From positions 1 to 64,000 of IMG/VR virus record IMGVR_UViG_3300009124_000009: 64,000 nt of DNA; one strand, 5' to 3'. The notes under the pieces are model-generated. The model searched no databases and was not told the DNA's origin. It saw nothing but the letters and a program-made list of their open reading frames with translations. A program made the translations under genes and the position numbers. Positions within the stretch are counted from its first letter, which is position 1. Each line of letters starts with the position of its first letter. This DNA comes from a virus. Shown in pieces: positions 53,703 through 63,254 of the stretch.

Positions 53703-53867
53703 TTAGGATTCTACTTTCTTCAAAGTAAATGAAAGTTCACTGTCATCCACAGAATACTCTAATTCATCCCCAACTGCCCATCCGAGGTCTTCTATAACTT
53801 CATCTGGAATCGGAAGGATAAGATCTCCGAATTCGTCTTCTTCTAGCGTAACAGTGAATCTTTTCAT
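53703..53867 (-). CDS. AbrB/MazE-like swapped-hairpin peptide (54 aa)
   Basis: The short protein MKRFTVTLEEDEFGDLILPI continues PDEVIEDLGWAVGDELEY and ends with a beta strand (SELSFTLKKVES). The GDLILPIPDEVIEDLGWAVGDEL core is the pattern of AbrB/SpoVT/MazE swapped-hairpin domains (strand, P-x-x-h-x-x-x-G-h-x-x-G-D). These are DNA-binding dimers, often in antitoxins or transition-state regulators. No toxin gene lies beside it. The protein is acidic overall, so DNA binding is uncertain. It is 4 bases from the downstream end of the 71-residue gene. Confidence 0.7.
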   Translation of the reverse strand: MKRFTVTLEEDEFGDLILPIPDEVIEDLGWAVGDELEYSVDDSELSFTLKKVES

Positions 53868-54414: not shown

Positions 54415-54789
54415 TCAGGCGTAGATGTAACCGTTGGTGAAAACACGCTCAACGTTGTTATCTTTGAGATACCAAACATGTTGGCGCTGATAAACACCAT
54501 CAGTGGCACCATTGCAGAAGCGGTCGATGATAGCGTTTAGACGAGATTTGGTGGTATTGGATTGCCAACCGCCATCAAAGATCTCCAGAAAATCTTCTCC
54601 GAGCACTGCAATCTTGTTACCATGAAGACGAACGATCGAAGTGTTATTTTCTTCGTTGAATGAAACCGAAGTGTTGCCAGATTGCCAATCTTTGCTGTTA
54701 GCGAGAGCGGCATTCATTTGCTGTTCGATCTTACGCATGAGAGACGATTTGAGAGGGTTTAGAGTGTGGAGAGAGAGATCGGGTCTCAT
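54415..54789 (-). CDS. Conserved hypothetical protein (124 aa)
   Basis: MRPDLSLHTLNPLKSSLMRK is followed by a helix, a beta part (TSVSFNEENNTSIVRLHGNK, LEIFDGG) and NAIIDRFCNGATDGVYQRQH with VWYLKD. This pattern recurs in cyanomyovirus conserved hypotheticals, as I recall; no function is known. The ATG at 54789 has a purine-rich GGAGGGGA site directly upstream, while a second ATG at 54738 is also possible. It is served by promoter cassette a. Confidence 0.75.
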   Translation of the reverse strand: MRPDLSLHTLNPLKSSLMRKIEQQMNAALANSKDWQSGNTSVSFNEENNTSIVRLHGNKIAVLGEDFLEIFDGGWQSNTTKSRLNAIIDRFCNGATDGVYQRQHVWYLKDNNVERVFTNGYIYA

Positions 54790-54801: not shown

Positions 54802-55044
54802 CTATAGTATGGCACCTCTAGGGGCACTCAGGGGGGTTTGGTGGACACTTTGACCAACTGGCACATCGGTTATTGATAGAAACCATCCGATCTGTTTGAT
54901 ATAATCGAAGGGAGACATTCTAGGCGTCACAGGATAACCTTCCCCACGTCCTTCTCTAACACCATCGACGAAAATCTCTAGTTCATAAACTGAACGAAAT
55001 TCCCCAACAAGTTCATCAGATTCATTATAAAGAAAGTAGATCAT
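54802..55044 (-). CDS. 80-residue protein whose tail is encoded by cassette a
   Basis: From the ATG at 55044 the product starts MIYFLYNESDELVGEFRSVY, a beta-hairpin-like start with YELEIFVDGVREGRGEGYP, and ends in VGQSVHQTPLSAPRGAIL. The last ~20 codons coincide with promoter cassette a and the stop TAG comes from its CTATAG. A longer start at 55089 would overlap the upstream gene and is less likely. Function unknown. The tail is probably the by-product of the regulatory DNA. Confidence 0.6.
   Translation of the reverse strand: MIYFLYNESDELVGEFRSVYELEIFVDGVREGRGEGYPVTPRMSPFDYIKQIGWFLSITDVPVGQSVHQTPLSAPRGAIL
54806..54865 (-). promoter_or_regulatory. Promoter cassette a (element plus CATACT)
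   Basis: The coding strand has a GTGCCA...GTCCAC element (54841-54864), then 29 bases, then TGC-CATACT with the -10 hexamer at 54806-54811. No recognisable -35 hexamer is found at 17 bp. The first base of the element is 35 bases from the first base of the -10 box, as in cassettes c-g. It serves the 124-residue gene and lies inside the 3' end of the upstream gene. Confidence 0.75.
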
Positions 55045-55048
55045 TTTG

Positions 55049-55255
55049 TCAATCCCCAGTGTGAACGTAATAGAGAAATCCTTCGGCAATCATATACTCC
55101 GAAGTTTTCTCTATCTTATCACTTAGTGTTTGCTGTTCAGTATCAACCAAGAACTGAAACAGTTTCACTTGCTCATCCACTGTCATTTGCTTGTTTCGCA
55201 TAAACCTGTGGAAAAGTAGTTTGTATTCCTCTGGTCCTGTGAATTGCTTTGGCAT
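55049..55255 (-). CDS. 68-residue helical protein, unknown
   Basis: MPKQFTGPEEYKLLFHRFMR and NKQMTVDEQVKLFQFLVDTE form two or three helices, with EYMIAEGFLYYVHTGD at the end. An upstream ATG at 55288 would place the first codons across the -10 box of a strong promoter, so the ATG at 55255 is preferred. The codons for LLFHRF contain a TTTTCCACA box on the coding strand. The downstream gene starts 4 bases after its stop. Confidence 0.7.
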   Translation of the reverse strand: MPKQFTGPEEYKLLFHRFMRNKQMTVDEQVKLFQFLVDTEQQTLSDKIEKTSEYMIAEGFLYYVHTGD

Positions 55256-55279
55256 TGTTTTCTGAACCCTGACAGTGTT

Positions 55280-55308
55280 ATTATACATGAGATTGGGGAT
55301 TTTGTCAA
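55280..55308 (-). promoter_or_regulatory. Consensus sigma-70 promoter
   Basis: TTGACA (55303-55308), a 17-base spacer and TATAAT (55280-55285) on the coding strand are a perfect match to the bacterial housekeeping consensus. The start site should be about 55273, giving a leader of about 18 bases before the ATG at 55255. It probably works with host RNA polymerase right after infection. Confidence 0.92.
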
Positions 55309-55394
55309 GTGGTTGTGATAGATTTGGATTCGTGATGTTTAGAGGGTTGACAACTCGTTAGCGAGGATGCTAAGACTACAATTCCTCCGAACAT
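55305..55394 (-). CDS. Possible 29-residue lipoprotein-like peptide
   Basis: The frame from the ATG at 55394 encodes MFGGIVVLASSLTSCQPSKH and nine more residues. A short hydrophobic stretch followed by L-T-S-C resembles a lipobox, and the frame stays open upstream through GTG codons (VVECVILLIMFGG), which would lengthen the hydrophobic part. There is no good ribosome site and the stop codon lies in the -35 box of the next promoter, so the peptide may not be made. Confidence 0.3.
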   Translation of the reverse strand: MFGGIVVLASSLTSCQPSKHHESKSITTT

Positions 55395-55452
55395 TATCAG
55401 AAGAATAACACACTCAACCACATTTATTTTGACATTTAGATAAAACCCCGCG

Positions 55453-55496
55453 TTTTCCACAATGTTAGATTTTCTTGTGGAAAAAGTTGTGGAAAA
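55453..55496. promoter_or_regulatory. Cluster of three TTTTCCACA boxes (candidate DnaA-type origin)
   Basis: TTTTCCACA occurs on the plus strand at 55453-55461 and on the minus strand at 55476-55484 and 55488-55496; a fourth perfect copy is at 55207-55215 (minus strand). The outer pair forms an 11-bp perfect inverted repeat, GTTTTCCACAA/TTGTGGAAAAC. This is the motif I recall as the DnaA box of cyanobacterial oriC. The surrounding gap (55395-55570) is AT-rich and has no supported gene. Binding by DnaA or origin activity is inference; the repeat could also act as an RNA structure. Confidence 0.6.
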
Positions 55497-55570
55497 CTAT
55501 TCTTACTGTTTCTTTGAGAGTGAGAACAATGTAAGACAATTCCTCTTTGATTGTTGTTTGTGTGTTGTGA

Positions 55571-55807
55571 TTACTTTCCATCTAATAGTATTACCTCGTG
55601 CCAATACTCTCTAAAACATAAGAGACAAACTTCATTGTTTGGTTGTTTAGCATGTGGATCAGGATTAGGGTAAGATCTTATACAAATGGTGATGTATCTG
55701 TCATCGATGAATCTAACAAAACCTTTGAAATCTTTCCACTGAACATGATCATCTAGAGAAAAAGTTGTTGTAGTGGGTTTAGTTTGGGAGGGTGCATTGC
55801 TGTCCAT
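55571..55807 (-). CDS. 78-residue hypothetical protein
   Basis: MDSNAPSQTKPTTTTFSLDD leads to a small beta-rich domain (HVQWKDFKGFVRFIDDRYIT, ICIRSYPNPDP) and an aromatic end (CLLCFREYWHEVILLDGK). The VQWKDFKGFVRFIDD pattern resembles short SH3-like or KOW-like barrels, a resemblance by eye only. The start lies within the 3' end of the upstream gene (55-base overlap). It is the last gene of the operon served by cassette b. Confidence 0.65.
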   Translation of the reverse strand: MDSNAPSQTKPTTTTFSLDDHVQWKDFKGFVRFIDDRYITICIRSYPNPDPHAKQPNNEVCLLCFREYWHEVILLDGK

Positions 55808-56055
55808 TTCGTTGTTAGCGATGGGTCAATGATTGATCCTGGTTTCTTGCTATTGATTGGGGAATGAATAGCACGAGTTTTGTTATGAATAAACCCCCAG
55901 ATTGTTTGGACTTGTTCGTTAGTGTAAGTGAACTTATTAGGGGGATGGACTAACCATACAGCAGTGAAAGTTTTATTGAATGGTGTTACTTTGTAGTGAT
56001 AGTCTTTTGGGGGTTTGTGTGGTAGAGGGGGATCAATAGCGATTGGATTGTTCAT
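55753..56055 (-). CDS. 100-residue Pro/Lys-rich protein, unknown
   Basis: From the ATG at 56055, MNNPIAIDPPLPHKPPKDYH leads to YKVTPFNKTFTAVWLVHPPN and a helix (NEQVQTIWGFIHNKTRAIHS), ending with PPKLNPLQQLFL. The last 18 codons overlap the following gene, so one of the two ends may be less constrained. A TTG start at 56070 is possible. No family was recognised. Confidence 0.6.
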   Translation of the reverse strand: MNNPIAIDPPLPHKPPKDYHYKVTPFNKTFTAVWLVHPPNKFTYTNEQVQTIWGFIHNKTRAIHSPINSKKPGSIIDPSLTTKWTAMHPPKLNPLQQLFL

Positions 56056-56191
56056 ACAATTTACGATCAAGATAGTCTAAATGTTGATCGGGCGTCATGT
56101 AATCTTCAACACAACCAGTATAATATATGTGCGAACGAATAGGGCGAGTGTTGTTACGAACTGAATTGGTTTGGCGTTGTTGACGTGACAT
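56033..56191 (-). CDS. 52-residue hypothetical protein
   Basis: MSRQQRQTNSVRNNTRPIRS, with five arginines in the first 20 residues, is followed by HIYYTGCVEDYMTPDQHLDY and LDRKLYEQSNRY. The basic head and acidic, tyrosine-rich tail suggest a small nucleic-acid or protein binder. It overlaps the next gene by 23 bases. Longer upstream frames lack a convincing start. Confidence 0.6.
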   Translation of the reverse strand: MSRQQRQTNSVRNNTRPIRSHIYYTGCVEDYMTPDQHLDYLDRKLYEQSNRY

Positions 56192-56195
56192 CGAA

Positions 56196-56408
56196 TCAGG
56201 GAAAGTAAGGGGTGAGAATGTTACGATAGTCGATGTATTTGATACAGAAACCAACAGCAGATGTGATTTCTTCGATTAGATCATCGGGGTCAGATGCTTC
56301 CCAATATGATCCTAGAATCTCCTCGTAGATTTCCTGTTGTTCATTAGGTGAAAGTTCAAAATTGTCATCCTCAAAATCAAATGTGATTTCAGTGATTTGG
56401 TATTGCAT
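56196..56408 (-). CDS. 70-residue acidic helical protein
   Basis: MQYQITEITFDFEDDNFELS, then PNEQQEIYEEILGSYWEASD and PDDLIEEITSAVGFCIKYID. It is very acidic and mostly helical. The ATG overlaps the stop of the upstream membrane-peptide gene by one base (TAATG type). Family unknown. Confidence 0.65.
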   Translation of the reverse strand: MQYQITEITFDFEDDNFELSPNEQQEIYEEILGSYWEASDPDDLIEEITSAVGFCIKYIDYRNILTPYFP

Positions 56409-56608
56409 TAGTTGAACAAATCGTTGAGGATAGATTTAGCAGTAGGTTCGGGGCGGATTTGCTCACTTGCCCAGTCTAATCCGTTTGCAATGTTAGAACG
56501 AGTGTCAGGGGAGTTAGCAATCAGAACACCGATGACAATGAGGAGAAGAACTTTCACTTGAGTTGCGTAGAAGTTTGCGGAACGAGATTTAGTGAGTGAC
56601 TTGAGCAT
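56408..56608 (-). CDS. 66-residue membrane protein
   Basis: From the ATG at 56608 (one base after the previous stop) MLKSLTKSRSANFYATQVKV forms a basic head, followed by a hydrophobic helix (LLLIVIGVLIANS) and a soluble tail (NIANGLDWASEQIRPEPTAK). The basic head before one membrane helix predicts an N-in topology. Longer upstream frames would overlap the 101-residue gene in another frame and are rejected. Confidence 0.65.
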   Translation of the reverse strand: MLKSLTKSRSANFYATQVKVLLLIVIGVLIANSPDTRSNIANGLDWASEQIRPEPTAKSILNDLFN

Positions 56609-56609
56609 G

Positions 56610-56915
56610 TTAGTAACGAGAATCACCTGCGACGATTGCATCATCCATGCCCGCAACTTCTGCTGCTTGCTCCCAAACATTGTAGAACATATCCCAAGCA
56701 TAGTTGTCTGCAACGAAGGTGGAAATGTCACACATTTCGCATACCCAATCGTATGCCATATCTGCATCTGCATTGTTATCAACGACGAAATCGTAGAGTT
56801 GTCCGATAACATCGCAGAAGCGAGAATCTTCTGCAAGAGAAACAAAGAACTTGCCAGTTTCGTTGTCGATCATGATACGCTTGCCAGTGATGGAGTGTGC
56901 AGATTTGTGAGTCAT
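56610..56915 (-). CDS. 101-residue cysteine-containing acidic protein
   Basis: MTHKSAHSITGKRIMIDNET opens the protein, followed by KFFVSLAEDSRFCDVIGQLY and an acidic, aromatic middle (DMAYDWVCEMCDISTFVADN) with a C-E-M-C pair, ending DDAIVAGDSRY. The start at 56915 lies just after cassette b; an upstream extension would encode the cassette and is rejected. First gene of a six-gene operon reaching to 55571. Function unknown. Confidence 0.7.
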   Translation of the reverse strand: MTHKSAHSITGKRIMIDNETGKFFVSLAEDSRFCDVIGQLYDFVVDNNADADMAYDWVCEMCDISTFVADNYAWDMFYNVWEQAAEVAGMDDAIVAGDSRY

Positions 56916-56964
56916 TTTGTTTGAGGTTAGTGTGTGTGGGGTTCGTTTCCCCCCCGTTGAAACC

Positions 56965-57023
56965 AATATAGGGCATTTGGGGGGTCTGTGCCAGAAAAGT
57001 GGACACCGTGCCGACTGGCACAC
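56965..57023 (-). promoter_or_regulatory. Promoter cassette b (variant)
   Basis: The element GTGTGCCA...GTGTCCAC occupies 56999-57023, and TATATT at 56965-56970 is the best -10 candidate, 34 bases away instead of 35. The spacer shares ACCCCCC with cassettes a and c. A G-run beyond the -10 (GGGGGGG) and a TCAAAC stretch lead to the ATG at 56915. This is the most divergent -10 of the group. Confidence 0.6.
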
Positions 57024-57030
57024 TAGTTCT

Positions 57031-57204
57031 TTACACTGTGGCAGGTGACAGACTAACATCAACTCGCTTTAGATTCAATCCAGCAAGTTGGTCAATCACG
57101 CGATCGTGGATCTTCGTGCAAGCATTTTTTGCACGAGATTGTTCATACCAAATGGTCGTACATCCGTCGTTGGTCTCTACTTGAACGCGAATAGTTTGAG
57201 TCAT
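57031..57204 (-). CDS. 57-residue hypothetical protein
   Basis: MTQTIRVQVETNDGCTTIWY followed by EQSRAKNACTKIHDRVIDQL and a C-terminal strand (LKRVDVSLSPATV) predicts a small beta-alpha-beta fold. It has two cysteines. The ATG overlaps the stop of the upstream 75-residue gene (ATGA) and its stop lies 8 bases before the conserved element of cassette b. Unknown function. Confidence 0.65.
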   Translation of the reverse strand: MTQTIRVQVETNDGCTTIWYEQSRAKNACTKIHDRVIDQLAGLNLKRVDVSLSPATV

Positions 57205-57428
57205 TGGAGTGTGAAATTGGGGATGAAAGTGAACTCGTATTTACCATCTTGCGGATCAACTCCGCCCACTAACCATTCTTCACAAATTGCAATCGCATCT
57301 TCATTGTTTCCTTCTTTGATACGATCTTGCATTGCTTCAAACAACGTGTCTGCCATGTTGTCGATAGAATGTTCCATTTCAGGGGTTTCGTCGTTGTTAG
57401 TGAACAGGTCGAGAGTTGAATCGTGCAT
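57201..57428 (-). CDS. 75-residue acidic protein
   Basis: From the ATG at 57428 the product starts MHDSTLDLFTNNDETPEMEH, continues with a helix (SIDNMADTLFEAMQDRIKEG, NNEDAIAICEEWL) and ends in beta segments (GGVDPQDGKYEFTFIPNFTL). The helical pair resembles a TPR-like unit. The gene shares 4 bases with the next one and starts 10 bases after the 63-residue gene. No named family. Confidence 0.65.
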   Translation of the reverse strand: MHDSTLDLFTNNDETPEMEHSIDNMADTLFEAMQDRIKEGNNEDAIAICEEWLVGGVDPQDGKYEFTFIPNFTLQ

Positions 57429-57438
57429 TGTTAGAAAC

Positions 57439-57630
57439 TCAGAAAGGATTGGTCCAGTTGTTGTACTGATTCTCGGAAATGTAACCCTCTTTGCAGAGTG
57501 AATCAGTGAAGTCATTCCATTCGGTACGCTTCCAAACTACGTCATTCTTGAGTTTGGGATGTGCAATAGTGATGACTTTCCAGTTATGACGAAACTGTGA
57601 AAGTGCTTGTGCTTTTGTGATGGTTCGCAT
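57439..57630 (-). CDS. 63-residue basic/aromatic protein
   Basis: MRTITKAQALSQFRHNWKVI leads to TIAHPKLKNDVVWKRTEWND and FTDSLCKEGYISENQYNNWT. It has four tryptophans and many basic residues. A good ribosome site (AAAGGA) precedes the ATG by 6 bases, and cassette c lies directly upstream. First gene of the operon continuing through 57031. Function unknown. Confidence 0.68.
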   Translation of the reverse strand: MRTITKAQALSQFRHNWKVITIAHPKLKNDVVWKRTEWNDFTDSLCKEGYISENQYNNWTNPF

Positions 57631-57655
57631 TGCGTTCCTTTCGGTTGATGCTTAT

Positions 57656-57715
57656 AGTATGGCACACCCTAGGGGCGTTCGGGGGGTTTAGTGTGCAGTT
57701 CGGTGATTGGCACAC
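57656..57715 (-). promoter_or_regulatory. Promoter cassette c
   Basis: The element (57691-57715) reads GTGTGCCAATCAC... GCACAC and is closest to a palindrome. CATACT (57656-57661) preceded by TGC starts exactly 35 bases away, with CCCTAGGG between. No -35 consensus at 17 bp. The element also encodes the last residues of the upstream peptide. Confidence 0.75.
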
Positions 57716-57858
57716 ACGTCATCGTAAGATGCACCTACGGGGATAGATTTGCAGAAACGTTCTAACTTAGCGTCCTGCATTTTGCTGACTGATTGAATGG
57801 CAGAAGAACCAATCACACCGCCCATGATGAGAACAAAAGCGAGAAGAATGAAGCGCAT
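57688..57858 (-). CDS. 56-residue secreted or membrane-anchored peptide
   Basis: MRFILLAFVLIMGGVIGSSA is a textbook signal or anchor sequence with Arg before a 15-residue hydrophobic core, followed by IQSVSKMQDAKLERFCKSIP and a Cys pair (FCK...DVCANHRTAH). Cleavage after the A of SSA is possible. The last ten codons coincide with cassette c. It shares a TGATG junction with the upstream gene, indicating coupling. No family was recognised. Confidence 0.65.
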   Translation of the reverse strand: MRFILLAFVLIMGGVIGSSAIQSVSKMQDAKLERFCKSIPVGASYDDVCANHRTAH

Positions 57859-58109
57859 CAGATAACCTCCTGTGCCAGGAACTTGTTGATAGTTTCTTCA
57901 GGCACGAAATCTTCACAAAACTCGCGCAACTGTTGCTCGTCTTCCATACAATAGAGAGAATAGATTTCATCTAAAATCTGATAATCGCTGCACGATTGCA
58001 TGTTATTCTCAATAGTATCGATGGCAAAAGATACGAGATCTTGCATATCCATAGCATCAACAATCTGTTGAGCGTAGGTTTCAATTAGTTGTGCGCGTTG
58101 CATAGTCAT
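57858..58109 (-). CDS. 83-residue acidic helical protein
   Basis: MTMQRAQLIETYAQQIVDAM, DMQDLVSFAIDTIENNMQSC and DEIYSLYCMEDEQQLREFCE form a helical, acidic domain with three cysteines. Similar helical proteins with (D/E)LxxFxxDxIxxN occur in cyanomyoviruses as hypotheticals, from memory. Position between two coupled genes supports co-translation. Confidence 0.68.
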   Translation of the reverse strand: MTMQRAQLIETYAQQIVDAMDMQDLVSFAIDTIENNMQSCSDYQILDEIYSLYCMEDEQQLREFCEDFVPEETINKFLAQEVI

Positions 58110-58136
58110 TGTGGTGAAATAATGCGGAGAAAAGGA

Positions 58137-58373
58137 TCAGCAGCAGGCAGGAGAATAGTTAGAAGAATCAGTCAGAAAGTCTGTGACTTCGTAACCAAGA
58201 TCAAGACGCGCATTTACGGTTTCGATCATCTCTTTACGAGACATAAGACGGATGGATTTAGTCATTTCATCACCCATAAACTTGAGGGTGTAGACAAACT
58301 TATCGCTGAGAATTGCATGGGGTTGAAACTCAACAACCATAGCGCGGGATTGACCTTTTGAAGTGAGTTGCAT
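58137..58373 (-). CDS. 78-residue hypothetical protein
   Basis: MQLTSKGQSRAMVVEFQPHA (beta), ILSDKFVYTLKFMGDEMTKS (beta hairpin) and a helix (RLMSRKEMIETVNARLDLGY) suggest a compact alpha-beta fold; the C-terminus is SNYSPACC. First gene after cassette d, and 27 bases from the next gene. Function unknown. Confidence 0.68.
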   Translation of the reverse strand: MQLTSKGQSRAMVVEFQPHAILSDKFVYTLKFMGDEMTKSIRLMSRKEMIETVNARLDLGYEVTDFLTDSSNYSPACC

Positions 58374-58398
58374 GTGCTTTGCTTTGTTTGACTCTTAT

Positions 58399-58459
58399 AG
58401 TATGGCACCCTATGGGGCGGAAATCAATCGGTAGTGGACACTTTGACCAACTGGCACAC
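58399..58459 (-). promoter_or_regulatory. Promoter cassette d (with partial -35)
   Basis: The element (58434-58459, GTGTGCCAGTTGGTCAAAGT and GTCCAC) is the best-conserved copy together with those in a and f. CATACT at 58399-58404 starts 35 bases away. TTGATT lies 17 bases before it and could act as a weak -35 box. The leader TATAAGAGTCAAACAAAG is identical to cassette e. Confidence 0.8.
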
Positions 58460-58460
58460 C

Positions 58461-58628
58461 CTAGAAAACATTAGTCCACCTCGCGTGATTTGCTTTGCTG
58501 ATTCTACCCTCTGCCAACATATTGTCGCAGACGTTGACAAAGACTTGAAACTTTTCCTCTCTAGTGAGAGAATGTGGTTCAGCAGCAGTAGAAATCACCC
58601 TAAGCATTTGTGCCTTTGATGTAATCAT
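58461..58628 (-). CDS. 55-residue hypothetical protein
   Basis: From the ATG at 58628, overlapping the previous stop (ATGA), the product reads MITSKAQMLRVISTAAEPHS, LTREEKFQVFVNVCDNMLAE and GRISKANHARWTNVF. It is a two-helix, basic, soluble peptide with a KFQVFVNVCDNML helix like small cyanophage conserved proteins. Its stop TAG directly abuts the cassette d element. Too small for a confident family call. Confidence 0.6.
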   Translation of the reverse strand: MITSKAQMLRVISTAAEPHSLTREEKFQVFVNVCDNMLAEGRISKANHARWTNVF

Positions 58629-58867
58629 TTGATGGAAACGTTGAAGTTTTGAAGATCAGTTTGTGTGATGGTTTCTTTACCCGAGAGCATCGAAAGATCC
58701 TCTCTAAGTGTCCACATTTTGTCATCTTGTGCGATAACAGCAAACCCGAAAACACCTGCGGTTGGCATCATGTAGAGACCATGCTTTTCTGCCTGTTTAG
58801 CACTACCAAACCCACGGGCAGTGATAGTCCAATCTTTACCGAAGTATGCACAAATGAAATCAGTCAT
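58625..58867 (-). CDS. 80-residue hypothetical protein
   Basis: The ATG at 58867 follows a strong GGAGG at 9 bases (within the end of the upstream gene), preferred to an upstream TTG. The product MTDFICAYFGKDWTITARGF has a beta-rich, aromatic N-terminal half, then GLYMMPTAGVFGFAVIAQDD and a helical end. It may be a small globular enzyme accessory; no family is recognised. Confidence 0.68.
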   Translation of the reverse strand: MTDFICAYFGKDWTITARGFGSAKQAEKHGLYMMPTAGVFGFAVIAQDDKMWTLREDLSMLSGKETITQTDLQNFNVSIK

Positions 58868-58872
58868 TATAA

Positions 58873-59076
58873 TCAACCTCCGAAGTTGTCATCCATGAAG
58901 GCAGAATCCTGCCCACGATCATCACCGAACATTTCAGTGTAGAGGTCAAGATTCTGATTCTTGTACTTCTCGTTGGTCATCCAGATCTCTTGCTCAATCC
59001 ATGCAAGTTCTGCGCGTTTCTTTAGCAGTTGCTCACGCAGATCGTAGAGTCGTTGATTGCGTTCGGTTAGAGTCAT
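58873..59076 (-). CDS. 67-residue coiled-coil protein
   Basis: MTLTERNQRLYDLREQLLKK and RAELAWIEQEIWMTNEKYKN give a continuous charged helix typical of a coiled coil. The tail is acidic (LDLYTEMFGDDRGQDSAFMD) and ends FGG, which encodes the ribosome site of the next gene. First gene after cassette e. Possibly a dimeric adaptor; function unknown. Confidence 0.68.
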   Translation of the reverse strand: MTLTERNQRLYDLREQLLKKRAELAWIEQEIWMTNEKYKNQNLDLYTEMFGDDRGQDSAFMDDNFGG

Positions 59077-59101
59077 TTGTGTTCCTTTGTTTGACTCTTA
59101 T

Positions 59102-59163
59102 AGTATGGCACACCTGAGAGGCATCCACAAGCGCCTGTGTGCCACTTTAGGCAACTGTCACAC
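59102..59163 (-). promoter_or_regulatory. Promoter cassette e
   Basis: The element (59137-59163, GTGTGACAGTTGCC... GTGGCACAC) is an imperfect inverted repeat. CATACT (59102-59107) preceded by TGC starts 35 bases away. TTGTGG lies at -35 with a 17-base spacer. The element contains the stop codon of the upstream 63-residue gene. Confidence 0.78.
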
Positions 59164-59349
59164 CCCAAACCCTCCTTTATCTTCTTTTTCCATCCTACGG
59201 TTAGCATCAACGATCTCACGAAGTTTATTCTTCATGAATCTCAACTCTTCCTCTTTGTAGAGAAATGGGTTATCATCACCGTTCTGAATTGCTTTCTTCA
59301 GTTTCTTGATTTGCGATCGAATTGTTGGCATTGGTTTGTAAGAAATCAT
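59158..59349 (-). CDS. 63-residue basic helical protein
   Basis: MISYKPMPTIRSQIKKLKKA is strongly basic, followed by a long helix (LYKEEELRFMKNKLREIVDA) and a Lys/Glu tail. This could be a small coiled-coil or DNA-binding protein. ATGA overlap with the oxygenase gene upstream indicates coupled translation. Confidence 0.68.
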   Translation of the reverse strand: MISYKPMPTIRSQIKKLKKAIQNGDDNPFLYKEEELRFMKNKLREIVDANRRMEKEDKGGFGV

Positions 59350-59990
59350 CGGACAATTTGTTGCTCGTAATATCCATCGCCCATTATTCCTTTGACAGAA
59401 TAATTGACAACGACATTCAGTCTATCATCATTTGATAGATTTTCTGGTGTTCCATGAAACGTAAATGCAGGAAATATGACCATTGTTCCTGCTTGTGGAC
59501 TGATAGTCATTTCATTAGCATTTAGTTCATTGGATCTTTCTAGTCTGGGTTTCAATGATGGCGTCATCCAGGTATGACGTAGACTCTCTTTTTCAAACTT
59601 TAGTCCACCACCATCCTCAGGCATTTTAGTGTAAAGTATGCCAGACCAGAGACAATTCTCATGGCAATGTTGTGGAGCAAAGTCTAATGTCTTGTGCCAC
59701 ATTGACCACGAGCGATTGCAATCTAGTTTAGTTGACTCTTTATCAACTGCCAGGGCATCATACACATAGTGATGCATTTCTGCTTTGATTGCATTAGAAA
59801 CGTCATCAAACTGTGGTAGTTTGAGAATCTCTTTGTTGACAGTTGTTTTACCTGTTGTGTTGTTACCCTTTACATCTTCCCACTCAAGATCTAGAAGACG
59901 TTTGTTGACATCTTCTAGATCAAGATTGTACTTTAGATGTATATCCTCTTCGATGTAAAGTGGGATTGCGAATAGTGGTAGAATTGCCAT
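59346..59990 (-). CDS. 2OG-Fe(II) oxygenase
   Basis: The 214-residue product matches the phage-type putative 2OG-Fe(II) oxygenase family (PF13759-like): FAIPLYIEED opening, FAPQHCHENCLWSGILY with His108/His110 and Glu111 as first iron ligands, GTMVIFPAFTFHGTPENLSN with His179, and DDRLNVVVNYS where Arg190 would hold 2-oxoglutarate. A HxE rather than HxD pair would be slightly unusual. Such enzymes hydroxylate proteins, nucleic-acid bases or small molecules; the substrate is unknown. Common in cyanomyoviruses. Coupled to the next gene. Confidence 0.85.
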   Translation of the reverse strand: MAILPLFAIPLYIEEDIHLKYNLDLEDVNKRLLDLEWEDVKGNNTTGKTTVNKEILKLPQFDDVSNAIKAEMHHYVYDALAVDKESTKLDCNRSWSMWHKTLDFAPQHCHENCLWSGILYTKMPEDGGGLKFEKESLRHTWMTPSLKPRLERSNELNANEMTISPQAGTMVIFPAFTFHGTPENLSNDDRLNVVVNYSVKGIMGDGYYEQQIVR

Positions 59991-59991
59991 A

Positions 59992-60501
59992 TCATTTCAT
60001 ATAAAGGTAACCACCTGCCCAGTCTGCTTTCTCATAACACTCCTCGCGAGATTTGTCATCGAGTAGATTATAACGAGCACCCTTTGCAGGAGACTTGAAT
60101 GATGCAGGTTTGAAAACATCGCCCGTCTTCTTGTCTACAAAGGCATGAACTGAGCGACTGCTAGAGTTATCCTGCTCCATGATAATCTTATAGTATTTAC
60201 GTCCTTCTTCAATAGGAAATGCAACCTCAGGATCACTATTAGCGATCTGATCTATGCGCTTTTGATGATAGTCTGCCTCAGACATGTTGCCTGCATTGGC
60301 AGCAAAGAAAAGAGAGCGTTTGTGTGATTGCATACAGCGAATCTTATAGTCCATGACTAGATTCTCACACAGCATGAGAGTATAATGATCTACCTGTTCT
60401 TGAGTTGATTGGCGTTCACCTTCGGTTGCACAATACTCAGCAAAAGACATACGTTCTTTCTCTTTGTTGTTGAGATGGATTTGATACTTGATTGCAGACA
60501 T
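59992..60501 (-). CDS. 169-residue conserved hypothetical protein
   Basis: MSAIKYQIHLNNKEKERMSF is followed by a helical, charged middle (RCMQSHKRSLFFAANAGNMS, HQKRIDQIA) and a C-terminal beta-rich part (KYYKIIMEQDNSSSRSVHAF, VDKKTGDVFKPASFKSPAKG, ARYNLL, EECYEKADWAGGYLYMK). This C-terminal arrangement recurs in cyanomyovirus genomes as I recall; its function is unknown. It starts 2 bases before the 65-residue gene stop and ends 1 base before the oxygenase. Confidence 0.75.
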   Translation of the reverse strand: MSAIKYQIHLNNKEKERMSFAEYCATEGERQSTQEQVDHYTLMLCENLVMDYKIRCMQSHKRSLFFAANAGNMSEADYHQKRIDQIANSDPEVAFPIEEGRKYYKIIMEQDNSSSRSVHAFVDKKTGDVFKPASFKSPAKGARYNLLDDKSREECYEKADWAGGYLYMK

Positions 60502-60503
60502 AA

Positions 60504-60701
60504 TCAGTTTTCGTTGAGGAAATCGTGAAGTGCTTCTTGATACTCTTCGTAGGAAGAATAACGATCTTGAAGATGTGCAGGAACTTGCTTTGCAGCAGGT
60601 TTCCGACAGTCACTGGCATCATAACCAGATTCGATGAGAGTTTGAACGTATGGATTTGAGTGCATTTGTTTCCAGTAATTAGAGTCGAACTTTGGCATCA
60701 T
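60504..60701 (-). CDS. 65-residue hypothetical protein
   Basis: MMPKFDSNYWKQMHSNPYVQ, TLIESGYDASDCRKPAAKQV and YEEYQEALHDFLNEN describe a small helical protein. The ATG overlaps the stop of the basic 86-residue gene by 4 bases. Promoter cassette g ends about 20 bases upstream. Function unknown. Confidence 0.68.
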   Translation of the reverse strand: MMPKFDSNYWKQMHSNPYVQTLIESGYDASDCRKPAAKQVPAHLQDRYSSYEEYQEALHDFLNEN

Positions 60702-60958
60702 TGGGTTTTTCCCTTTGATTGCTTAGCAATCTTAGCACCTGGGGACCGCTTTCGGCGTGGTTTGGGTGCAGTTTCAGGATTGGCACACTCTAGTACGAAT
60801 GTACCTTTCTTCAACTTGTATTGTTTGATATACTTTTCCGCGTTCTCTTTGCAGTGGAAAAAGCATAGTTTCATGGGAGGTTTTTTCCTCCCTTCTTTAG
60901 GTCCATCCTGGTGTTCTAGACGCCAGGGCATACTCTCGTAGGGAAACTTTTCAGACAT
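60698..60958 (-). CDS. 86-residue basic protein with regulatory DNA in its 3' end
   Basis: From the ATG at 60958: MSEKFPYESMPWRLEHQDGP, then KKPPMKLCFFHCKENAEKYI, KQYKLKKGTFVLECANPETA and a very basic tail (PKPRRKRSPGAKIAKQSKGK). The two cysteine-histidine pairs could bind metal. The tail codons correspond to cassette g. It overlaps the nuclease-like gene upstream by 8 bases. Function unknown; possibly nucleic-acid binding. Confidence 0.68.
   Translation of the reverse strand: MSEKFPYESMPWRLEHQDGPKEGRKKPPMKLCFFHCKENAEKYIKQYKLKKGTFVLECANPETAPKPRRKRSPGAKIAKQSKGKTQ
60729..60788 (-). promoter_or_regulatory. Promoter cassette g (inside a coding region)
   Basis: The element (60764-60788, GTGTGCCAATCCTGAAACTG then CACCC) closely matches cassette c. 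TAAGAT at 60729-60734 preceded by TGC starts 35 bases away, replacing CATACT. The whole cassette is read as the C-terminus of the 86-residue protein. Confidence 0.68.
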
Positions 60959-61460
60959 ATTCATCCATCCAGTAGAAGTCTTCAGGCATACCATCGAGGA
61001 AGAATGTGCCGCTATTTACTTTCTTTCCGCCATGCTGATTGTAGATCCATTCATTCTTCTCATTGACAACCATTACATGCTTCTTGATGGTATCTTTGTC
61101 AGCATAGAAGAAACAAATGCTAGAATGATAGACGGCAACAAATACCATCACATCGTAATCTTGCGCGGGACGGATCTGCTGCCAGCGGAAATGTGTGCCC
61201 TTATCCCACATGAATGATCCTTTGATCTCTACCTTTAGACCATCAACAATACGATCGTGATCGCTATTCTTGGGTTTCTCTACTTTCTTGCCTTTGCTAA
61301 CACAATACTCCTCAAAGATCTTCTCAAAATACTTACCTTTCTTCTTGCTGCTGAGTTGCTTCAGCGGTTGAAATACGCTGCCATGATAGTAGTCATCGTC
61401 ATGCTCATTGAGAATCTCAGCATAACAATCAAGTTTCTGGAATTGAGTGGCGTGAAGCAT
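60951..61460 (-). CDS. Probable PD-(D/E)XK nuclease
   Basis: The 169-residue protein has KGKYFEKIFEEYCVSKGKKV (Glu46/Glu50 helix), SDHDRIVDGLKVEIKGSF with Asp73 and Glu78-x-Lys80, and FRWQQIRPAQDYD with a following Gln-Gln-Ile, then strands (VMVFVAVYHSSICFFYADKD). This order (helix Glu, Asp, ExK, Q) is that of the PD-(D/E)XK fold of restriction and repair nucleases. It lies downstream of a helicase gene, with one small gene and cassette f between them. It may degrade host DNA or process phage DNA. No catalytic test is possible here. Confidence 0.72.
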   Translation of the reverse strand: MLHATQFQKLDCYAEILNEHDDDYYHGSVFQPLKQLSSKKKGKYFEKIFEEYCVSKGKKVEKPKNSDHDRIVDGLKVEIKGSFMWDKGTHFRWQQIRPAQDYDVMVFVAVYHSSICFFYADKDTIKKHVMVVNEKNEWIYNQHGGKKVNSGTFFLDGMPEDFYWMDEYV

Positions 61461-61482
61461 TGCGAATCTCTTTGACCTTTAT

Positions 61483-61543
61483 AGTATTGCACCTTTCACG
61501 GTGCTTTGCAAGTGATAGTGGACAGTTTGACCAACTGGCACAC
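61483..61543 (-). promoter_or_regulatory. Promoter cassette f
   Basis: The element (61518-61543, GTGTGCCAGTTGGTCAAACT and GTCCAC) lies 35 bases from AATACT (61483-61488), preceded by TGC. TTGCAA is placed 17 bases before the -10 box, and GCACC-GTGAAA-GGTGC forms a 5-bp stem between them. It serves the nuclease-like gene and the genes after it. Confidence 0.8.
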
Positions 61544-61746: not shown

Positions 61747-62985
61747 TCAGCAATATGCGAGGGGAGGAATACCTTCCATGAAGATCTGGTTGACAACATT
61801 CTGCAAACGTGCAGCGATAGCGTTACCCATCTTGTAACCTGTAGGCATAGTCACGATGCCCTCTTGTTTCTTGTAAAGGTGAAACGCACCAGCAGGAATC
61901 AGACCCTGAGCAACAGCAGCACGGTCATCTTTGTGGACACGGATAACACGACCGATCGTCTGTGCCATCTCAATGATGGGCAGATTACGCAGCAGAATAG
62001 TATGCGTCAGACCAGGAACATTGATGCCCTCAGAGAGAATGGAATAGTGGAAGATTACAAACTTCTTGCTATCATCAGCACCCCAAGATGTGAGGGTCTG
62101 GAAGAACTCTTCACGACCAACTTTGCGATCATTGATGATAGCACCAAACTTGCTGGTGATGTGCATCACGTCGTAACCTTTGCGGTAGAAATACTCCAGA
62201 ATGTCAGTCTGTCCGAGCATGTTACCCAGCACCTTAGAAGATGGTGCAGCAACCAGAACTTTAGGATTCTGGAAGACATCGAGTTGCTCAAACATATCCT
62301 TCAGATTGTCTGCATCAACCTCATGTGCGTTATGCTTAGTGCGGGTGCGATTGGTCTCGAAAGGAACAATGCGGGGAGGAACGATTGCACCTGCTTCGAT
62401 GAGTTCTTGAGCAGGGACATTGCAGAGAGTGCCACCATAAACGTCGCTATTGTTCATGCCACGAGTTACACTAGTGCCGCGACCAGTGCGAGGAGTTGCA
62501 GTAAAATAGTAGCGACGTTTGGCATACTGTGCGGTAGCATATACAGCACCGAAGAAGTGACGACCGCAACCATTGTGTGCTTCGTCGAAGTAAATGGTAT
62601 CAATATCGATGCCACTATCTACAACACGGGGCAGAGAATGATAGGTGGTAAAGATCAGCGTAGACTTGGCATTACTGCGCCACAGAGTAGCAGCAGAAGC
62701 AATCTCTGCTGGTTTGGTAGTGCTGAAGTGGTGAGTTTCGCCACTGTGAACGTGCATAACGCGAGTCGAAGTAGCAGACACAAACTCCATGAACTCTTCG
62801 CACAGTTGATTAGCGAGAAGAATACGGGGAGCAACAACAACTGTAGTGCTACCCTGTGCAGCACGAGCAAGACAATCAGCGATCATGATGTAAGTCTTGC
62901 CACCACCAGTAGGCACAATGATCTGACCCTTATCGTGCTTCTGCATTGCATCGAAAGCACGTTGTTGATGGGGGCGGAGTTGCAT
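61747..62985 (-). CDS. Superfamily II DNA helicase (UvsW/SSL2-like)
   Basis: From the ATG at 62985 the 412-residue protein contains Walker A PTGGGKT (25-31), a DEAH box (IYFDEAHNG, 134-137), TATPR (162-166), and a motif VI of the type QTIGRVIRVHKDDR near residue 350. It belongs to the DEAD/DEAH group of DNA translocases, as do T4 UvsW and bacterial restriction-type helicases, and probably acts in branch migration or origin clearing. An upstream in-frame extension would span the promoter and is rejected. The strong promoter at 63014 drives it. Confidence 0.88.
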   Translation of the reverse strand: MQLRPHQQRAFDAMQKHDKGQIIVPTGGGKTYIMIADCLARAAQGSTTVVVAPRILLANQLCEEFMEFVSATSTRVMHVHSGETHHFSTTKPAEIASAATLWRSNAKSTLIFTTYHSLPRVVDSGIDIDTIYFDEAHNGCGRHFFGAVYATAQYAKRRYYFTATPRTGRGTSVTRGMNNSDVYGGTLCNVPAQELIEAGAIVPPRIVPFETNRTRTKHNAHEVDADNLKDMFEQLDVFQNPKVLVAAPSSKVLGNMLGQTDILEYFYRKGYDVMHITSKFGAIINDRKVGREEFFQTLTSWGADDSKKFVIFHYSILSEGINVPGLTHTILLRNLPIIEMAQTIGRVIRVHKDDRAAVAQGLIPAGAFHLYKKQEGIVTMPTGYKMGNAIAARLQNVVNQIFMEGIPPLAYC

Positions 62986-63013: not shown

Positions 63014-63042
63014 AGTATTGCATAAAAAAAGTCCCCTGTCAA
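63014..63042 (-). promoter_or_regulatory. Sigma-70 promoter with -35 box in terminator loop
   Basis: TTGACA (63037-63042), 17 bases, and AATACT (63014-63019) preceded by TGC form a strong promoter. The hexamer TTGACA is the loop of the terminator stem at 63024-63049. A degenerate cassette-type element, TGTGCCA...GCGTCAC (63050-63073), lies upstream at 36 bases from the -10 box. Confidence 0.85.
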
Positions 63043-63049
63043 GAGGACT
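63024..63049 (-). terminator. Terminator of the 65-residue gene
   Basis: On the minus strand AGTCCTC, loop TTGACA, GGGGACT (7 pairs including one G-T) is followed by TTTTTTT. It lies 7 bases after the stop of the upstream gene, a standard intrinsic terminator. Confidence 0.85.
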
Positions 63050-63056
63050 GTGACGC

Positions 63057-63254
63057 TTATTCAGGTGGCACATTGCGTAAGTGCAGTTTGTCAATGATGT
63101 CATCTACTTGTGCAAAGAGTAAATCATACTCTTCTGATGTAACTGTCTTATCATTGTAATAGTGTTTTTGCAATTCTGCAATATACAAAAACATTGCACG
63201 TCTAGCGATTTCTTTCTCTTCATGTGAGAGAATTGCGGTGCGAAGTGATGTCAT
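63057..63254 (-). CDS. 65-residue helical protein
   Basis: The ATG at 63254 is preferred to an in-frame TTG three codons upstream. MTSLRTAILSHEEKEIARRA, MFLYIAELQKHYYNDKTVTS and EEYDLLFAQVDDIIDKLHLR give a helical bundle; the end is NVPPE. It is close to the upstream gene, which shares its last bases with the alternative start. Function unknown. Confidence 0.7.
   Translation of the reverse strand: MTSLRTAILSHEEKEIARRAMFLYIAELQKHYYNDKTVTSEEYDLLFAQVDDIIDKLHLRNVPPE

What the first reader, a model, noticed from the sequence alone, without database searches (positions are those of the whole stretch)
54806..61543. A recurrent promoter cassette with a conserved upstream element at a fixed distance from an extended -10 box
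Seven intergenic or gene-end sites (54.8, 57.0, 57.7, 58.4, 59.1, 60.7 and 61.5 kb), plus a degenerate one at 63.05 kb, share an element of the form GTGTGCCA...GTGTCCAC of 25-27 bp. The distance from its first plus-strand base to the first base of the -10 box is 35 bp in six copies, 34 in one and 36 in the degenerate one. The -10 is mostly TGC(C/A)ATACT; a is clearly without a -35, while d, e and f have poor ones. The placement, about 44-70 bp upstream of the expected start, is that of an activator site. This suggests a phage-specific activator (or host factor) governing a middle-gene regulon of small genes. Shared leader sequence TCAAA(C) follows most copies.
Basis: partly seen in the sequence, partly recalled or inferred. 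Interest (0 to 1): 0.82.

Follow-up and report, generated by a model that had tools for sequence, protein, structure and literature searches.

The report
Cyanophage promoter with upstream palindrome site
Marine T4-like cyanophages carry, in front of many of their small poorly understood genes, the same promoter with a palindromic protein-binding site always about 52 bases upstream of the predicted start, which points to an unidentified regulator of that gene cluster.

Summary
The element is a symmetric dyad, TGTGMCASTT-N4/5-AASTGKCACA; GTGTGCCA...GTGTCCAC is one lineage's version. Dyads found without using any -10 information (125 in 8 complete and 8 partial Kyanoviridae genomes plus the window) have a strong -10 at +41.5 bp from their centre 44 times and at +42.5 bp 12 times, against about 0.24 per position in the background. 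In each complete genome they concentrate in one 10-20 kb cluster of small genes. A near-identical copy precedes at least 22 unrelated protein families. The two arms do not co-vary, so it is a DNA site rather than an RNA hairpin. About 9% of cassettes embed an intrinsic terminator.

The likeliest mechanism is a dimeric regulator, probably an activator, docked just upstream of host sigma-70 RNA polymerase. The protein is unknown. Most host genomes show no matching regulon, although one host genus has similar sites. 'Middle-gene regulon' is not supported: replication-gene homologues in Syn9 lack the element. The two most relevant papers (Weigele 2007, Doron 2016) were not available, so novelty is provisional.

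The parts
54841..54865 (-). dyad, 25 bp (TGTGCCAGTTGGTCAAAGTGTCCAC)
   Evidence: dyad score 25.1
54806..54811 (-). -10 hexamer CATACT with TGC before it; drives gene 54415-54789 (Kyano_Gp96 family)
56999..57022 (-). dyad, 24 bp (TGTGCCAGTCGGCACGGTGTCCAC)
   Evidence: dyad score 15.7
56965..56970 (-). -10 hexamer TATATT; upstream of gene 56616-56915
57691..57714 (-). dyad variant (TGTGCCAATCACCGAACTGCACAC)
   Evidence: whole-cassette score 44.6
57656..57661 (-). -10 hexamer CATACT with TGC before it; upstream of gene 57439-57630
58434..58458 (-). dyad, 25 bp, identical to the 54.8 kb copy
58399..58404 (-). -10 hexamer CATACT with TGC before it; upstream of gene 58137-58373
59138..59162 (-). dyad, most symmetric copy in the window (TGTGACAGTTGCCTAAAGTGGCACA)
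   Evidence: dyad score 31.7
59102..59107 (-). -10 hexamer CATACT with TGC before it; upstream of gene 58873-59076
60764..60787 (-). degenerate dyad inside the 3' end of gene 60698-60961
   Evidence: score 20.7
60729..60734 (-). weak -10 (TAAGAT); upstream of gene 60504-60701
61518..61542 (-). dyad, 25 bp (TGTGCCAGTTGGTCAAACTGTCCAC)
   Evidence: dyad score 25.5
61483..61488 (-). -10 hexamer AATACT with TGC before it; upstream of gene 60951-61460
63049..63072 (-). dyad, 24 bp (TGTGCCACCTGAATAAGCGTCACA)
   Evidence: dyad score 25.1
63014..63050 (-). terminator hairpin (AGTCCTCTTGACAGGGGACT + T7) with -35 TTGACA in it, then -10 AATACT; promoter of the helicase gene 61747-62985
   Evidence: same arrangement in relatives

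Best explanation
Each copy is a promoter cassette: a 24-25 bp dyadic protein-binding site (half-site TGTGMCASTT) centred about 52 bp upstream of the predicted start, then a sigma-70 type promoter (variable -35, strong -10, often TGn-extended) and a short leader to the ATG. A dimeric DNA-binding regulator, most likely an activator, sits at roughly -64 to -40 on the same DNA face as classic activators and contacts host RNA polymerase, so that one regulator controls the whole cluster of small, exchangeable genes. Shown: sequence, symmetry, spacing, -10 consensus, family-wide conservation, clustering. Inferred: that a protein binds, that it activates, and when. The protein is unknown; a phage-encoded one is slightly preferred.
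For: Symmetric-dyad search without -10 information converges on TGTGMCASTT-N4/5-AASTGKCACA; the -10 offset then peaks at 41.5 (44) and 42.5 (12) against 0.24 per class. 135 oriented cassettes: TATAAT 47, TATACT 23; -35 in 36% against 3% of shuffles; ATG about 30 nt downstream. Arms vary independently: odds ratios 0.55 (p=0.32) and 0.30 (p=0.04), where pairing would need values above 1. Eight complete genomes: sites concentrated in one cluster each; 6 hits in 12.8 Mb of shuffled strand. At least 22 unrelated families downstream of near-identical cores. Large viral contigs: up to 13 sites, control pattern 0. No matching regulon in most of 201 host-family genomes.
Against: No 5'-end, expression or binding data. 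A site just upstream of -35 could also serve a repressor. No conserved phage gene with an obvious DNA-binding domain was found: the only AbrB/MazE-like one at the cluster edge is strongly acidic and was not found in S-SSM7. One host genus has similar dyads, so a cellular factor remains possible.
Confidence: 0.6

Rival explanations
1. The dyad is bound by a host transcription factor that the phages exploit, as with PhoB; the cluster is then expressed early by host machinery alone.
For: Promoters are host sigma-70 type. One Cyanobiaceae genus carries 35 dyads at up to 3 mismatches against 5 for the control pattern in 10 genomes, among them a syntenic one about 430 bp upstream of 16S rRNA and others beside restriction and toxin-antitoxin-like genes, several followed 6-9 bp later by TTGAC. 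PhoB hijacking is documented for S-PM2d (PMC10976474).
Against: 190 of 201 host-family genomes have no match at up to 2 mismatches; the 16S-upstream site was not found in 30 other 16S loci of the family; the phages carry up to about 15 per genome.
Confidence: 0.3
2. The dyad is a repressor operator: a phage protein made during infection switches the cluster off after the early phase.
For: Dyad next to -35 of ordinary sigma-70 promoters that may need no activator in the third with a good -35.
Against: The site does not overlap -35 or -10, and fixed spacing on the activator helix face is not needed for steric repression.
Confidence: 0.2
3. The cassettes are mainly recombination modules like the promoter-stem-loops (PeSLs) of other T4-like phages, and the dyad is kept as shared homology.
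For: Near-identical cassettes before at least 22 unrelated families; 12 of 135 embed a perfect terminator against 0.1% in shuffles; the cluster is made of small exchangeable genes.
Against: In distant phages the dyad keeps its half-sites and spacing while the sequence between dyad and -10 diverges, which homology alone does not explain.
Confidence: 0.12
4. The dyad acts as an RNA hairpin at the 3' end of the upstream transcript.
For: Inverted repeat; transcripts may run through it; one window copy folds better than shuffles.
Against: Arms do not co-vary; two of three window copies fold no better than shuffles; position is fixed relative to the downstream -10.
Confidence: 0.03

Closest known systems
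T4 MotA/AsiA middle promoters
   Same: Phage promoters recognised by host RNA polymerase with a -10 and a dedicated upstream site replacing the -35
   Different: The MotA box is a short site at about -30; here a 24-25 bp dyad is centred near -52, a -35 is sometimes kept, and cyanophages lack motA and asiA (PMC2984593)
Promoter-early-stem-loop cassettes (PeSLs) of T4-like phages (Arbiol 2010, Comeau 2014; known here only through PMC4503421)
   Same: Composite terminator-promoter cassettes between exchangeable small genes
   Different: PeSLs as cited there are promoter plus stem-loop; the family-wide upstream dyad at fixed spacing is not mentioned in what could be read
Putative middle promoter reported by Weigele 2007 in Syn9 and P-SSM4 (via PMC2984593)
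   Same: Claimed cyanophage-specific promoter motif
   Different: Said to be upstream of T4-middle homologues and absent from P-SSM2 and S-PM2; the present dyad is in both of those and not at the replication genes
PhoB-box hijacking by cyanophages (P-SSM2, S-PM2d)
   Same: A regulator site upstream of phage genes, read by host RNA polymerase
   Different: Pho boxes are repeats of PyTTAAPyPyT/A; this is an unrelated inverted repeat

Membership tests
T4-type middle promoter (MotA box) | MotA box centred near -30, 12-13 bp upstream of the -10 | tested here: not met
   The conserved element is centred 41.5-42.5 bp upstream of the -10
T4-type middle promoter (MotA box) | Phage encodes MotA and AsiA | not tested
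   Reported absent from cyanomyoviruses (PMC2984593)
PeSL composite cassette | Intrinsic terminator combined with a promoter in one intergenic cassette | tested here: inconclusive
   Present in 12 of 135 cassettes against 0.1% in shuffles; a stem of 5 bp or more in 31; not general
PeSL composite cassette | Cassette marks recombination breakpoints between non-homologous genes | tested here: inconclusive
   At least 22 unrelated downstream families share a near-identical core; breakpoints not mapped
Activator-dependent sigma-70 promoter | Regulator site at fixed helical distance upstream of a sigma-70 -10 | tested here: met
Activator-dependent sigma-70 promoter | Promoter output requires the bound regulator | not testable with these tools
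   Needs reporter or in vitro transcription
Host regulon site | Same site controls genes of the host family | tested here: inconclusive
   Excess in one genus; 190 of 201 genomes without a match at up to 2 mismatches

The most novel reading that the evidence does not exclude
Marine cyanomyoviruses, which lack MotA and AsiA, use a family-wide transcription regulator of their own, not yet recognised, that reads TGTGMCASTT-N4-AASTGKCACA and controls the hyperplastic small-gene cluster as one regulon.
Probability: 0.33. Interest if true: 0.8.

Novelty: new variant of a known kind. Interest (0 to 1): 0.62.

Why it matters
How T4-like cyanophages time their genes without MotA and AsiA is an open question in the literature that could be read. 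A conserved operator with exact spacing gives a bait for fishing out the regulator, predicts several to a dozen or more transcription starts per genome, and defines a regulon of small genes of unknown function that are candidates for host takeover.

Tried and rejected
RNA hairpin: rejected because arms do not co-vary. Chance or low complexity: rejected. Host regulon: a strict pattern gave 44 stretches in 84,980 genomes, mostly Acidobacteria and filamentous cyanobacteria, with no consistent promoter context; a relaxed search found one host genus with an excess, but its rRNA-upstream site is not family-wide. AbrB/MazE-like protein 53703-53867 as the regulator: conserved next to the cluster in 7 of 8 genomes but strongly acidic (net charge -4 to -16), so more likely a DNA mimic or antagonist than the binder. 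Core-gene comparison for other candidate DNA-binding proteins showed no obvious one by inspection. A first PWM from the exactly-selected loci was discarded as biased. A leader-anchored search was too strict. Literature: no held paper that was found describes the motif; Doron 2016, Weigele 2007 and both PeSL papers were not available.

Full report
WHAT WAS CHECKED. The window lies in a 71 kb viral contig whose closest named relatives are Kyanoviridae: S-RIM50, S-RIM8, Syn9, S-H35. A model trained on other genomes recovers six cassettes with scores 23-42, against 0.10 hits above 18 per shuffled window; two further copies with a variant right arm come from the whole-cassette model. The 63.07 kb copy is a full-strength member, and the 60.79 kb copy is the degenerate one.

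WHAT THE ELEMENT IS. In relatives the element is an inverted repeat. Expectation-maximisation with a symmetric half-site, using no promoter information, converges on TGTG(A/C)CA(C/G)TT with a gap of 4 or 5. The two variable positions of the half-site show no positive correlation between the two arms (odds ratios 0.55 and 0.30), so the symmetry is of DNA, not of a paired RNA. The window's GTGTGCCA...GTGTCCAC is the 25 bp form common in its lineage; 68 stretches of IMG/VR DNA hold a near-exact copy.

GEOMETRY. For 125 dyads chosen by dyad score alone, strong -10 hexamers on either strand fall at +41.5 bp from the centre 44 times and at +42.5 bp 12 times; the background is 0.24 per class. Among 135 oriented cassettes the -10 is TATAAT (47), TATACT (23), CATACT (14) or AATACT (12); a -35 above threshold is present in 36% against 3% of shuffled spacers; the first ATG lies about 30 nt downstream. 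With a start about 7 nt after the -10 (assumed, not mapped), the dyad centre is near -52, one helical turn upstream of the -41.5 position of class II activators (general knowledge).

DISTRIBUTION. In Syn9, S-H35, S-RIM12, ACG-2014d, S-PM2, P-SSM2, S-SSM7 and Syn1 the sites concentrate in a single 10-20 kb cluster of small genes, with a few outliers, for example upstream of Syn9 gp183 and a similar site in S-RIM12; shuffled sequence gives 6 hits in 12.8 Mb of strand. Many rows in that table are the same dyad read on both strands, so the true number is lower than the row count. Ten large viral contigs show the same clustering where they have several sites, up to 13, with no match to the control pattern. 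A near-identical core precedes at least 22 protein families that are not related by BLAST, so the promoter is not inherited with one gene. The PHROG families of the window genes are mostly of unknown function.

COMPOSITE WITH TERMINATORS. In 12 of 135 cassettes a perfect terminator hairpin and T-run fill the space between dyad and -10, against 0.1% of shuffles. The window's helicase promoter at 63.01-63.05 kb is of this kind, with TTGACA inside the hairpin. This resembles the promoter-stem-loop cassettes of other T4-like phages, known to me here only through the discussion in PMC4503421.

MECHANISM. The best reading is a dimeric regulator bound at about -64 to -40 that helps host sigma-70 polymerase. 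A repressor is possible. The timing is unknown: nothing in the sequence says 'middle', and Syn9's homologues of T4 replication genes do not carry the element.

WHOSE PROTEIN. Of 201 genomes of the host family, 11 have a match at up to 2 mismatches (17 sites, control 2), one of them apparently a cyanophage contig. One genus shows a clear excess at 3 mismatches (35 against 5). Its sites include a syntenic one about 430 bp upstream of 16S rRNA and others beside restriction and toxin-antitoxin-like genes (named from sequence inspection, not tested), several with TTGAC 6-9 bp downstream, as in the phages. The 16S-upstream site is missing in 30 other 16S loci of the family. This leaves a cellular factor possible. 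No phage protein with a convincing DNA-binding domain was found.

PRIOR WORK. Held reviews say that cyanomyoviruses lack MotA and AsiA and that a putative middle promoter was reported in Syn9 and P-SSM4 but not in P-SSM2 or S-PM2 (PMC2984593). The present dyad is in both of the latter and so is probably different. Doron 2016 and Weigele 2007 could not be read; if either shows this motif, the finding is already known. Ten literature searches returned no description of it.

Noticed in passing
window 53703-53867 (-): 54-aa SpoVT/AbrB-MazE-like protein (Pfam MazE_antitoxin E=1e-4, below cut-off), strongly acidic, next to the small-gene cluster in 7 of 8 genomes; possibly an antagonist or DNA mimic of host AbrB-type regulators.
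   Followed up: partly
L352-L357, L367, L370 (one Cyanobiaceae genus): A conserved dyad like the phage one lies about 430 bp upstream of the 16S rRNA gene in most genomes of one host genus, but not in 30 other 16S loci of the family.
   Followed up: partly
L358, L359, L365: In the same host genus, pairs of such dyads about 0.9-1.3 kb apart flank small toxin-antitoxin-like genes beside restriction and AAA-ATPase genes, some with a shared sequence upstream (GGTAGCTTGATGGTGGTTGAG); could be mobile-element ends.
   Followed up: no
L146, L153, L157, L163, L175, L178: A Pyrinomonadaceae (Acidobacteria) genome has at least six TGTGACASTT-N4-AASTGTCACA sites; probably an unrelated regulator.
   Followed up: no
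L187 and L317: Contigs filed under a Flavobacteriales MAG (TMED113) and a Cyanobiaceae genome look like cyanophage DNA (binning contamination).
   Followed up: no
window 57439-57630 and 58461-58628 (-): Two paralogous small genes (both phrog_336) within the cluster; a cassette lies directly upstream of only the first.
   Followed up: no
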